In this document: in pieces, positions 2,038 through 9,641 of the stretch
How the letters are laid out: each line of letters starts with the position of its first letter
How positions within the stretch are numbered: the first letter of the stretch is position 1
NCBI GenBank assembly: GCA_002474345.1
Contig: DKQD01000098.1
Location: 1 to 13,446 of the forward strand
Source: Bacteriovoracaceae bacterium UBA7317
GTDB lineage: Bacteria; Bdellovibrionota; Bacteriovoracia; Bacteriovoracales; Bacteriovoracaceae
Direction: 5' to 3'
Length of the DNA: 13,446 nucleotides
Made by a program: the position numbers and the translations under genes
Notes under the pieces: generated by a model
What the model was told of the DNA's origin: nothing
Seen by the model: the letters and a program-made list of their open reading frames with translations, nothing else
Databases searched by the model: none

Positions 2038-2073
2038 ACATGCCTCTCTAATTTACCGAAAAGGGAGGCATGT
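2038..2073 (+). promoter_or_regulatory. Inverted repeat enclosing the RBS and AUG of HK-A
   Basis: The left arm acatgcctctc (2038-2048) pairs with the right arm gggaggcatgt (2063-2073): 11 pairs, one of them G-U, around a 14-base loop. The right arm contains the only Shine-Dalgarno-like run (aagggagg, 2061-2068) and the ATG at 2070-2072, so folding would hide both. The RBS is also abnormally close to the ATG (one base after gggagg). No T-run follows on either strand, so this does not look like an intrinsic terminator. A role as a translational switch is inferred; the pairing itself is directly visible. Confidence 0.5.
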
Positions 2074-5000
2074 CATTAAAAAGAAAAATTACTTCACTAC
2101 TTAATAAATCCGGAGACCTATCACTCCAATTATTTTTATTAATTATGTTTGGTTATTTTCTAATCATTCTTGCCATTTTCACTTACCGATACCAAAATTT
2201 AAAACAAATTGAGCAAAAAAATATAGAAAAAGAAATAAAAGAGTTCTCCAAGAGTTTTTCCTCACCAATTGGAAAGCATCTATTTGAAAAGAAAAAAAAT
2301 TTACTAATAGAAAATATAAATAAAATTTTAGAAAAAGAAATAATAACAGGGGTTAAAATAACGGACCCTTTTAGAAATCACATTGAAAGTAAGGGAACTA
2401 CAACTGAATACTTATTGAAAAAAGAAATTCCAATCAATATACAAATTAATAACCAAAAGGAAATGATTGGATACATGAACTATTACTCCGTGGAAGCGGT
2501 CATATTTCCTCGAATAAAATATAAATTGGTCAATTTATTATTTAAGTTATTTTTAGAGTTTTTAATTCTTAGCATATTTTTATATTTATTTTTATTAAAA
2601 AATATTAAAAAGCCTCTAAGAGAAATTGTTAAACAAATGTCTCTTATGAAGCCTAAAGAGTTATCTAAAGTTGCTGTGTCATCATCGCTAAGTGGGATCG
2701 ATTTGTTAAGAGACTCTTTTAATCAGATGGTTTCAAAGATTTCCCAACATAAAAAAACTTACGAAGAAAAAAATCAAGCGCTTAAAGATATCGATCTACA
2801 AAAAACAAATTTCTTCAAAAATATTTCAGTTGAATTACAAACACCTCTTAACCTAATCATTGAACCATTGGAAAACCTACACCAAAAATACCTGGAAGAG
2901 GAACATTTTGGTACTGCTTTAAAAAATTCAAAAAAGCTGTACCGGTTAGTTGAGCAACTTCTTGATTTTCAAAGTTTATCTATAGATAAAATGACGCAAA
3001 AAGACTGGCCGATAAATGTCTTTCACTTTTTAAAGCAGGTTCATTTCTTATTTCAAAGCACCTATAGCTTCGAAGATATTGATTTCAATTTAGACATCGA
3101 AAAGCTTGTTACTCACTCTGATGATGGAGAATCTACTCACAAGGGTATCTTTATTCAGGTTAATCCAGAAAATTTAGAAAAAATAGTTTTTAACTTTCTT
3201 TCGAATGCTCTCAAGTTTACTGGTGAAGGAGGGAGGATTACCCTAGGTGGGGAAAGAAGAGATAATATAATTCGAATTTTTGTAAGAGATTCAGGCCCTG
3301 GTATTCCCAAAGAGAAACAAGAAAAAGTATTCGAAATCTTTGGCCAACTTGATCCAGATCCAACTTCAACATTTGAAGGTACCGGACTTGGACTTGCTTT
3401 AAGTAAAGAATTGACAATAAAAATGAAAGGAAAAATTGGAATTGAAAGTGAACCAGGTCATGGTAGCGAGTTTTTTTGTGAATTTAAAGAAATAGATTAC
3501 GATAAAGAAGAATTGGACATACTGATTTTAGAAGATGAAATAGATACCGCAAATACTCTAGAAATGATTTTAGAAAAACTTCCAGAAACACCTAAATATA
3601 AAATTGCTCTAAGTTCAGAAGAAGGACGTAAAATTCTAGAAGATAATCAAGTCAAATTAGTTATCGCTGATTCAAGGTTACCTGGAGAAGGTGGTATTAG
3701 CTTTTTGGAGTTTATAAGAGATACTCAACCACAAACAAAAAAAATATTACTTACAGGTGATACTGATTATGAGGCATTAAAAAATGCTCATAATCATGCA
3801 AAAGTCGATACAATTATTTTTAAACCCTGGGATGAACATTTTCTACTAAAAACGATAGATGAACTCCTTCAATTCTTCGGTAGTAATATTAAAAATTCTC
3901 TTTATCTCAAAACAAGAATTGATATAAAAAAGGATAAGGAAGAAGAGGAAGGGGATGACGAATCTGTTCTTTCTGAGGTAGAAGAAACTAGAACTCAGAG
4001 AGTTATACTTATTGTTGATGATATTAAAGACATGAGAAATCTTATTTCAAAAGAACTAAGGGAAAAAGGCTTCAAAGTAATTTCTAGAAGTAATGGCCTT
4101 AATGGATTTGAAGCCGCTAAGCAGTTTTCTCCCGATTTAATTATAACCGATTGGATGATGCCTATTATGAATGGGCCTGAAATGATTTCAAAAATTAAGA
4201 AATATGAAGAAATTTCTAATATTCCGATAATAATCCTAACTTCCAAGGCAGAACAGGAAAGCAGGATTAAAGGAATTGATATTGGAGCAGATAATTACTT
4301 ATCAAAACCATTTAAAATTCAGGAATTAATCAGCAATATTTATAACCTGATTGAATTGAAAGAAAATGAGAAAAAACTAACTACAGCAAATAATGAACTT
4401 CAAGAGAAACAATCTGCTATTCAAAATCTCCTTGAGAACTTGGGCCAAGGTTTTCTTATATTTAATGAAAAAGCTGTTGTCTTACCGGGTTGCTCTGAAG
4501 TAACAAAAGACTTTTTTGGAACTGACCCCACATCAAAGTTCTTTTACGATGTAATTTCACTTAATGAAAATCAAAAGAAAACATTTATGAGTTGGATAAA
4601 AAATGTATGGAAAGGTAATTTCTCATTTAAAGATATGCTTCCCTTAGCCCCTAAAATGTATGAAGAGGAAGAAAAGTATATTCAACTCAATTACAGACCT
4701 ATATATGGACCTAATGGAAATCTCGAAAAAATAATTTGCGTTGCCACAAATAAGACACAAGAAAGAAAGCTTGAAATTAAAACAAAAAATGAAAGAGAAA
4801 AGATTCAGATGATTTTAAAAATATTAAAAGATCCACTTGGTTTCCAAAATGTCATTGATACGACTTACTCTACCTTTAATTTATTTGAAGTAGAACTTAA
4901 TAAGAACCCAAGTGATATAGATATAACGTATATTTATAGAAAAACACATACATTAAAAGCACTCTTCGGTTCTTTCTCAGTTCCCGAAATACCTTCAATC

Positions 5001-8900: not shown

Positions 8901-9641
8901 GAAATATTTATTGAAGAGCAGAACAGTCTTTTTTTAGACGATGAAGTTAGTAAAAAAAATATACGACTTATAGACCTCAATAGAATTCAAGTTTTGGCAG
9001 AAAATTTAAAAACAGAATTAGGTGATGAGCATAACCTTTATCAAGAATTTAAAAATAAATTTTTCTTTGAACAAATTTCAAAAAGTTTCCAAAAGTATAA
9101 GGAAAAAATAGAAGAGCTCGGTCAAAGAAAAGAAAAGAAAATTGAGTTTCAAGTTAATCCAAGTAATATAAAAATTGATGTAAATAAGTTTTTGCCATTA
9201 ATTAACTCATTTATTCATATCTTTAGAAACTCAATTGACCACGGTATAGAAACACCAGAAGAAAGGCAAAAAATGGATAAGTCCTCAGTGGGAAATATAA
9301 ATGTTTCCTTTTTTACGGAGAATATAGAAAATAAAAATTTTTTAAAAATCGTGTCAAGAGATGATGGAAAAGGAATTGACCCAAATGATATTCGCCAAAA
9401 AGTACTGAAACTCAAGCTTATGTCTAATGAAGAAGTAAGAAACCTCTCAGATGAGGAAACCATCCAGCTTATCTTTCTTCCTCACTTTTCCACTCGAAAT
9501 TTTGCGACAGAAACATCCGGCAGAGGCGTTGGAATGGATGAGGTGAAACATCAAGTTACGTCTCTTGGTGGTAAAATTCATGTTTACTCAATTCCAAAGA
9601 AAGGAACAACTATAACAATATTAGTTCCACTGGTCTCATAG
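5901..9641 (+). CDS. HK-B: membrane hybrid histidine kinase with REC-pseudoREC-PAS-Hpt-like and intact CheA-type ATPase
   Basis: A 1246-residue paralog of HK-A, collinear over its length: the HisKA position is residue 254 in both. TM helices are at about 17-37 and 158-177, flanking a sensor that differs strongly from that of HK-A. The H-box is intact (NMSHEIRTPL, His254). The first HATPase has N371 and DSGVGIP (from D399), but its ATP lid is about six residues shorter than in HK-A and its G2 box reads KAGFGLSLAK. REC1 (about 470-590) is intact: E474/D475, Asp520, Lys571. REC2 (about 630-745) has D635/D636 and Lys731 but reads IIITNWLMPEMSG, so Asn679 replaces the phospho-Asp. A PAS-like domain spans about 765-890. 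In the Hpt-like segment the position of HK-A His960 is Tyr948. The C-terminal ATPase (about 1055-1244) is CheA-like and intact: HIFRNSIDHG (H1106, N1110), DDGKGID (from D1154) and SGRGVGMDEVK (G1207 on). There is no CheW domain and no output domain. ATG 5901 precedes TM1 by a normal distance, but no RBS is seen. Confidence 0.9.
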   Translation: MVTYDKKVSSISNLTKYTFAFFTFIFSISFIFQFFLYVENEKKELISKVHFFISENKSYYKSSLKLLDVKKLETELNKIQNFSFIQKVELIIDYKNKKIQSKNESKNKLNLIEYLIPSTATEPLSSFNLNYDGYFKFSIKPGHIYKKIIPDLRLELIELFSKVIFINLIILIIIRNFLLNPIKTLSENLQRIDWVNLLKTHALFPLENEISVMKNLFNNLIDELKNYQFILNEQNFRLEELSGQKTHFFQNMSHEIRTPLTLILSPLENLSARYNEESDFRTAFLNSKKLYRLVNNFLEFQKLIANKKISDMHPINVVEFMNNYFSMFTDNYYLKGIDLKIKIPRELENKDIFIQAEIDSLEKIIFNFLSNSLKFSPKGSKIFFGIEKKDQSIKVFVKDSGVGIPVNKQKEIFETYPNEDKQKAGFGLSLAKKLTENMGGSIGFESKIGQGSRFWIEFKELKNIKETIDLLIVEDEEDCVESLEILIEKLSHCHGYKVAKNSEEARELLSKFNVKCIIADSQMPGEEGTSFLAFAHKTQPKATRLLVTGRADEFIIQKATNEAKVDFIIFKPWDEDDFIKILNNSLKKPFEQVKFLFDDWQIADVLNTDDESNKKYNEVLDEILFYNSKTILFCDDQNEMRELINLKLKQVGYNTICRANGKLGLAATYKHKPDIIITNWLMPEMSGPELIIKIKEDENLKNIPIILLTAKTTEECRSIGLDFGADAFIGKPFDFRELKSIIKNLLKVRATERNLIKANNELLEKQESIKTLMDNLEEGLFTFNEKGIIQPGFSKSTIDIFNCDPSFLSFSEVLKFDNNQKRQFKKWCHQIWSGKYDFFDLVNLAPKVYMKGECIIELDFKPIYKFRNQKKVVDSVICIASDKTQEVNLEKKSQEEKMKARMLLHIIRDPHGIRKLTRYALSLLNIFSKEIKAEYEKMDLEKMAKIIYYLQVKFASHSIHYIYEITQKLDKAFFFLKNQGPSEKVLTNITETVNELKENIEIFIEEQNSLFLDDEVSKKNIRLIDLNRIQVLAENLKTELGDEHNLYQEFKNKFFFEQISKSFQKYKEKIEELGQRKEKKIEFQVNPSNIKIDVNKFLPLINSFIHIFRNSIDHGIETPEERQKMDKSSVGNINVSFFTENIENKNFLKIVSRDDGKGIDPNDIRQKVLKLKLMSNEEVRNLSDEETIQLIFLPHFSTRNFATETSGRGVGMDEVKHQVTSLGGKIHVYSIPKKGTTITILVPLVS

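What the first reader, a model, noticed from the sequence alone, without database searches (positions are those of the whole stretch)
2070..9641. Tandem giant kinases with reciprocal loss of catalytic residues: a probable obligate trans-acting pair
HK-A and HK-B share one domain order (sensor-HisKA-HATPase-REC-REC-PAS-Hpt-CheA-type HATPase), but each lacks key residues the other keeps. HisKA: A Val254, B His254. First ATPase: A canonical, B with a shortened lid. REC2: A Asp694, B Asn679. Hpt: A His960, B Tyr948 at the aligned position. CheA-type ATPase: A decayed, B intact. REC1 is intact in both. Taken together, the pair contains one working copy of every module while neither protein alone is complete. 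A coherent circuit would be: ATPase-1 of A phosphorylates His254 of B; the CheA-type ATPase of B phosphorylates His960 of A; REC2 of A is the unique second receiver. A precedent for split kinases acting in trans is the Rhodobacter sphaeroides CheA3/CheA4 pair. The residue states are seen directly; the circuit is inference.
Basis: partly seen in the sequence, partly recalled or inferred. Interest (0 to 1): 0.82.

Follow-up and report, generated by a model that had tools for sequence, protein, structure and literature searches.

The report
Tandem giant kinases with complementary losses
Two neighbouring giant bacterial sensor kinases, old duplicates of each other, have each lost the catalytic parts that the other keeps, so that they probably work only as a pair.

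Summary
The losses are not errors or drift: they recur in 5 of 5 A and 7 of 7 B sequences. The homologs counted outside the pair never show them: Hpt His 34 of 34, CheA-type N-box Asn 34 of 34, HisKA His 26 of 26, first G2 Gly of ATPase-1 26 of 26, REC2 Asp 227 of 227. A and B are sister clades, so one complete ancestor was probably duplicated and the copies degenerated in a complementary way. The dead modules stay conserved. In the one other genome whose locus could be read, the order is the same, tex-A-B-lolC-fadJ-fadA. Models support a helical Hpt-like bundle and a CheA P4 fold. I judge an obligate trans-acting pair most likely (about 0.65): A's first ATPase phosphorylates B-His254, and B's CheA-type ATPase phosphorylates A-His960. 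Wiring, complex and output are inferred. Complementarity alone is weak statistically (chance about 0.2). Split kinases are known; this doubly reciprocal form appears to be a new variant.

The parts
2070..5849 (+). HK-A, 1259-aa hybrid kinase
2763..2984 (+). HK-A HisKA/DHp, phospho-acceptor His replaced by Val254 (codon 2829-2831)
   Evidence: V or I in 5 of 5 A, H in 26 of 26 others
2985..3503 (+). HK-A HATPase-1, canonical N, G1, F and G2 boxes
3513..3884 (+). HK-A REC1, Asp534 present
3996..4364 (+). HK-A REC2, Asp694 present (codon 4149-4151)
4365..4784 (+). HK-A PAS-like domain
   Evidence: weak Pfam match (PAS_4 E 0.14); predicted mixed strands and helices
4785..5249 (+). HK-A Hpt bundle, His960 present (codon 4947-4949)
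5250..5846 (+). HK-A CheA-P4-type pseudo-ATPase: N-box and first two G2 glycines lost, fold and G1 kept
5901..9641 (+). HK-B, 1246-aa hybrid kinase
6594..6815 (+). HK-B HisKA/DHp, His254 present (codon 6660-6662)
6816..7310 (+). HK-B HATPase-1 with degenerate G2 box (codons from 7167) and a lid 6 residues shorter
7320..7700 (+). HK-B REC1, Asp520 present
7785..8150 (+). HK-B REC2, Asp replaced by Asn679 (codon 7935-7937)
   Evidence: N in 7 of 7 B; D in 227 of 227 others
8151..8585 (+). HK-B PAS-like domain
   Evidence: alignment to A and predicted secondary structure
8586..9065 (+). HK-B Hpt-like bundle, His replaced by Tyr948 (codon 8742-8744)
   Evidence: Y in 7 of 7 B; H in 34 of 34 others; helices
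9066..9638 (+). HK-B CheA-P4-type ATPase, N, G1 and G2 boxes intact

Best explanation
HK-A and HK-B descend from one full-length membrane hybrid kinase that carried two kinase/substrate couples: HisKA with HATPase-1, and Hpt with a CheA-P4-type ATPase. After tandem duplication each copy lost what the other kept, so both couples are now split across the pair. Most likely mechanism: A and B form a mixed complex. (1) A's HATPase-1 phosphorylates B-His254 in trans. (2) B-His254~P feeds REC1 of A (Asp534) and/or B (Asp520). (3) B's CheA-type ATPase phosphorylates A-His960 in trans. (4) A's Hpt exchanges phosphate with A's REC2 (Asp694), with REC1, and with an unknown output regulator. The dead domains persist as structural, dimerisation or docking parts. 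Shown: residue states, their conservation, sister relation, synteny in two genomes, sequence constraint. Inferred: loss of activity, the mixed complex, the phosphoryl route. Unknown: signal and output.
For: States in 5 of 5 A and 7 of 7 B, absent from the 34 C-module, 26 N-module and 227 REC2 homologs counted. Each kinase/substrate couple has its kinase on one protein and its acceptor on the other. A and B are each one clade (100/100) and sisters (97/89 for the N module, 81/86 for the C module). Tandem and syntenic in G121, 87% and 86% identical. Dead modules are conserved: dN 0.023 (A HisKA), 0.076 (A CheA-type), 0.038 (B ATPase-1), 0.037 (B REC2), 0.048 (B Hpt), with dS 1.92, 1.61 and 1.30 for A CheA-type, B ATPase-1 and B Hpt and undefined (saturated) for the other two. 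B's P4 domain matches CheA structures (best E 7.7e-30). A's Hpt matches a CheA P1 structure with His960 on its HTLK His. Precedent: CheA3 and CheA4 of R. sphaeroides form such a bipartite kinase (PMC3591291, passages read).
Against: No biochemistry and no complex model. Disjoint losses alone have a chance of 0.2. DHp similarity of A and B is unremarkable. B's ATPase-1 keeps its N-box Asn, G1 box and first F-box Phe, so its inactivity is the least certain of the five losses. The genome has 49 Pfam Hpt matches at E 0.001 or better and many CheA-like kinases with intact motifs that could serve as other partners. Only two loci show the pairing. The database gave 4 A against 7 B clusters (window's own included), not equal numbers, though the searches scored only the candidates sharing most words. 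The third congener, G122, has neither gene, but it also lacks tex and a close fadJ ortholog and is 68% complete, so it says nothing either way. The sister relation in the C-module tree has only moderate support.
Confidence: 0.65

Rival explanations
1. RcsC/RcsD-like division of labour: one member is mainly a phosphotransfer and regulatory pseudokinase. The two proteins form separate homodimers that associate, and only one of the two trans-phosphorylations is real, for example B's CheA-type ATPase on A-His960, while B-His254 is served by its own weakened ATPase-1.
For: B's ATPase-1 keeps its N-box Asn, G1 box and first F-box Phe in 7 of 7. RcsC and RcsD have similar architectures, RcsD has an inactive kinase domain plus Hpt, and structures there argue for homodimers in a heterotetramer (PMC13317618, preprint, passages read).
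Against: A's HATPase-1 keeps the N, G1, F and G2 boxes in 5 of 5 sequences although A has no HisKA His, which an idle pseudokinase would not need. B's G2 box is degenerate in 7 of 7.
Confidence: 0.2
2. Each protein works with third partners. The losses are independent specialisations: other kinases phosphorylate A-His960, and B's P4 domain acts on other Hpt proteins.
For: 49 Pfam Hpt matches in this genome, and 23 other proteins with CheA-type N-box and G2 motifs in the fetched loci L041-L060, 21 from this genome and 2 from G122.
Against: The genes stay adjacent in both readable loci and the losses are exactly disjoint; the chance of the latter, 0.2, does not exclude this rival.
Confidence: 0.12
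3. Relaxed decay of redundant modules, no functional split.
For: Duplicated genes often decay (general knowledge). A's Hpt and CheA-type regions are less conserved among A orthologs than its other domains apart from sensor and linkers (55% and 51% against 73-81%).
Against: Same residues lost in all A or B sequences examined, down to about 60% identity; dead modules still constrained.
Confidence: 0.03

Closest known systems
CheA3/CheA4 split kinase of Rhodobacter sphaeroides (PMC3591291, passages read)
   Same: Kinase domain and phospho-acceptor domain on two proteins, trans-phosphorylation.
   Different: CheA3 and CheA4 lack whole domains. Here both proteins keep the full architecture and lose single motifs, two kinase/substrate couples are split instead of one, and the Pfam scan shows no CheW-type P5 domain.
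RcsC/RcsD phosphorelay (PMC13317618, preprint, passages read)
   Same: Two membrane proteins of like architecture, one with an inactive kinase domain and an Hpt domain.
   Different: In Rcs the kinase loss is one-sided as described there. Here losses are reciprocal and involve a second, CheA-type ATPase.
Hik36-Hik43 (PilL-N/PilL-C) of Synechocystis (PMC7656254, passages read)
   Same: CheA homolog split into two genes whose products interact; Hik36 carries the Hpt domain.
   Different: A gene split into two pieces, not degenerated full-length duplicates.
Single-chain full architecture L044 6638-10696 (1352 aa, own genome) and P0249 (1372 aa)
   Same: HisKA, HATPase-1, REC2, Hpt and CheA-type ATPase in one chain.
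   Different: The key residues are intact in one protein; the REC1 region is divergent; by the C-module tree the fusion may be independent.
Sensor/REC-PAS-Hpt-P4 kinases (P0235-P0248 and proteins of about 600-750 aa in this and related genomes)
   Same: The C-terminal module; P0235-P0248 are 26-33% identical to A there.
   Different: Hpt His and P4 N-box and G2 box intact in the 34 counted; most have no HisKA half.

Membership tests
Hybrid histidine kinase (HisKA-HATPase-REC) | HisKA, HATPase_c and REC domains in one chain | tested here: met
   Both proteins match the three Pfam families; the HisKA score of A is below the cut-off (24.9 against 26.9).
Hybrid histidine kinase (HisKA-HATPase-REC) | Phospho-acceptor His in HisKA | tested here: not met
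   Met in B, not in A: V or I in 5 of 5 A. A is a HisKA pseudo-acceptor.
Split histidine kinase | ATP-binding and phospho-acceptor functions on two separate proteins | tested here: met
   By residues, for both couples; activity not tested.
Split histidine kinase | The two proteins form a complex and neither autophosphorylates alone | not testable with these tools
   Needs biochemistry.
CheA | Core P1, P3, P4 and P5 domains (PMC10782961, passages read) | tested here: not met
   P1-like (A) and P4 (A, B) matches exist, but no CheW/P5 domain in the Pfam scan. Works like CheA, not a CheA.
RcsC/RcsD | One-sided pseudokinase with Hpt, working with an active hybrid kinase | tested here: not met
   Losses are reciprocal.

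The most novel reading that the evidence does not exclude
A natural, doubly reciprocal split kinase: two full-length tandem paralogs that can signal only together, each carrying the kinase for the acceptor on the other, fixed by duplication, degeneration and complementation, so that the output requires both sensors (a molecular AND gate).
Probability: 0.5. Interest if true: 0.8.

Novelty: new variant of a known kind. Interest (0 to 1): 0.66.

Why it matters
It would be a clean case of complementary degeneration inside a multidomain signalling enzyme, with every step readable from single residues. It offers two kinase/substrate couples in which trans-phosphorylation is forced, a natural test bed for questions usually addressed with engineered mutants: cis against trans phosphorylation, why dead domains are kept, and how a homomeric kinase becomes an obligate heteromer.

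Tried and rejected
Sequencing or alignment error: rejected, since orthologs share the states. More genomes with the pair: the family search covered 129 genomes (own included; five candidates scored per genome), and the order and class searches again returned 129 with the same listed handles; the pair was found only in G000 and G121. The genome-contig scan used two short peptide patterns and returned 35 loci; one, isolate SP87 (L067), is letter for letter the G121 contig with the pair, and the next best is 35% identical. That scan may leave out genomes very near the window's own. Heterodimer signal in DHp identity: none. Other split pairs in this genome: not excluded. A motif scan of 40 ORFs of 600 aa or more in L041-L060 printed only those with at least three of six motifs, so it could not show badly degenerate proteins, and its patterns miss some intact Hpt sites; a second look at some of the rest, among them the tandem 865- and 863-aa proteins of L050, gave no clear case but was not aligned. 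Hairpin at the HK-A start as a regulon marker: the short pattern has one other match in G000 (C185, not examined) and two in G122, of which the one examined lies inside a gene that I read as hemB. Rfam: no match. Promoter and terminator scan: no more than shuffles. In one search the output was cut; REC2 was redone. The REC2 control takes the best-scoring receiver of each protein, which favours intact ones.
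Full report
What is there. The window (contig C192 of a 3.83-Mb assembly) holds tex (partial), then two long + strand ORFs separated by 51 bases, then a LolC-like permease, a FadJ-like and a FadA-like gene on the - strand (the names tex, lolC, fadJ and fadA are my reading of the sequences, recalled, no family search was made for them). 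Pfam finds HisKA, two HATPase_c stretches and two receivers in each long protein. Two hydrophobic segments near residues 14-41 and 151-183 flank a segment of about 110 residues, so both are probably membrane sensors. The congener G121 is Halobacteriovoraceae bacterium isolate SP87, a MAG: the record L067 under that title is identical to the first 10,913 bases of G121 contig C74.

The residue states. I aligned the pair with three further A proteins and six further B proteins from the protein database, and added the two G121 proteins in a second alignment with homologs. HisKA His: V or I in 5 of 5 A, H in 7 of 7 B, H in 26 of 26 other N-module homologs. First Gly of the ATPase-1 G2 box: G in 5 of 5 A; K, Q or N in 7 of 7 B; G in 26 of 26 others. 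The B lid is six residues shorter (seven in P0127). Hpt His: H in 5 of 5 A, Y in 7 of 7 B, H in 34 of 34 other C-module homologs. CheA-type N-box Asn: C or F in 5 of 5 A, N in 7 of 7 B, N in 34 of 34 others; its Arg and the first two G2 glycines behave alike. A keeps the G1 Asp and both G1 glycines, which is against a complete decay. REC2 Asp: D in 5 of 5 A, N in 7 of 7 B, D in 227 of 227 others. REC1 Asp: D in 5 of 5 A and 7 of 7 B, and in 23 of 26 others, so REC1 is the acceptor that both copies retain although relatives sometimes lose it. These counts leave out weak hits.

Is it more than chance? Six modules, two lost in A and three in B, fall on different modules by chance with probability 4/20 (my arithmetic), so complementarity by itself is weak. 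What is far from chance is that losses not seen in any counted homolog outside the pair are fixed in every A or every B sequence examined, down to 59-60% identity in A and 67-69% in B. The modules that lost catalysis are still conserved. Between G000 and G121 (Nei-Gojobori, synonymous sites near saturation, three module ratios undefined), dN is 0.023 for A's HisKA, 0.076 for A's CheA-type domain, 0.038 for B's ATPase-1, 0.037 for B's REC2 and 0.048 for B's Hpt; dS is 1.92, 1.61 and 1.30 for A's CheA-type domain, B's ATPase-1 and B's Hpt and undefined for the other two. B's dead Hpt region is better conserved than A's live one (90.6% against 80.9% identity).

Origin. In a tree of the HisKA-ATPase-REC1 module A and B are sister clades (97/89), and in a tree of the PAS-Hpt-P4 module likewise, with moderate support (81/86). 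Since the outgroups keep the residues, the simplest history is one complete ancestor, a tandem duplication, and complementary losses. The C-terminal module is otherwise found mostly in proteins of about 600-920 aa with other sensors or with a receiver. A full single-chain architecture with these residues intact occurs in the same genome (L044 6638-10696) and in P0249, but it lies elsewhere in the C-module tree and may be an independent fusion.

Structure. AlphaFold models of A 760-1259 and B 750-1246 (mean pLDDT 85.4 each, pTM 0.61 and 0.58, so domain arrangement is not reliable) show a PAS-like part, a helical bundle, and an ATPase-like part; the acceptor position (His960 or Tyr948) lies in the second helix of the bundle. 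Foldseek matches isolated CheA P4 structures for B (target-normalised TM 0.84-0.90 in the listed rows) and, less well, for A (0.69-0.80). By sequence B's P4 matches CheA at E 7.7e-30 and A's at 8.8e-9. A's Hpt matches a CheA P1 structure, 1tqg, with His960 on the His of HTLK (E 0.0014; that this is the phosphorylated His, and that 1tqg is P1, is recalled); B's finds no CheA.

Co-occurrence. In 129 genomes of the family (own included), A-type matches at 87% and B-type matches at 86% occur in one genome other than the window's own, G121, and there in the same order between the same neighbours. The third congener, G122, has only distant relatives, but it lacks tex and a close fadJ too. So two of two readable loci carry the pair together; this is too few to call the association obligate.

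Mechanism. The anatomy splits both kinase/substrate couples across the proteins, which favours a mixed complex with two trans-phosphorylations (see Best explanation). Published precedents show that such splits work: CheA3/CheA4 (PMC3591291), the interacting Hik36 and Hik43 (PMC7656254), and, in a one-sided form, RcsC/RcsD (PMC13317618, a preprint), whose authors favour a heterotetramer over a 1:1 heterodimer; that option is open here as well. Phosphate flow between two hybrid Che kinases is also documented (CheA3 to a receiver of CheS3 in R. centenum, PMC3868531). All five papers cited (with PMC10782961) were read as passages only. The listings of literature searches, most of them capped lists out of more papers, showed no reciprocal full-length pair of this sort and nothing on these genes; subscription journals are mostly outside that library.

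Verdict. Observation confirmed and strengthened, interpretation well supported by evolution but biochemically open. New variant of the split-kinase kind.

Noticed in passing
window 2038-2073: A predicted hairpin of 12 base pairs covers the presumed ribosome-binding site (GGGAGG) and the ATG of HK-A; in G121 it is 11 base pairs with the same 12-base loop (predicted -21.5 and -21.9 kcal/mol for 85-base stretches). It could hide the start site, or be an operator or terminator. The core pattern has one other match in G000, not examined.
   Followed up: partly
L044 6638-10696 (-); P0249: Single-chain kinases of 1352 and 1372 aa that carry HisKA, HATPase-1, REC2, Hpt and CheA-type ATPase with intact key residues, with a divergent REC1 region.
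   Followed up: partly
G000, whole assembly: 49 Pfam Hpt matches at E 0.001 or better in 3.83 Mb, and 21 proteins of the fetched G000 loci, 618-1358 aa, with CheA-type N-box and G2 motifs: a large set of CheA-like kinases; no comparison with other genomes was made.
   Followed up: no
L042 3843-5861 (-) and 6270-10193 (+): In G122 a PAS-Hpt-P4 protein (672 aa) lies divergently beside a 1307-aa hybrid kinase related to A and B up to about REC2/PAS: related halves as separate neighbouring genes.
   Followed up: partly
window 2070-2762 and 5901-6593: Residues 1-231, which hold the sensors, have dN/dS 0.10 in A and 0.22 in B, the highest of the larger domains except A's Hpt region (0.13); A and B are only 17% identical there, which suggests two different inputs.
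   Followed up: no
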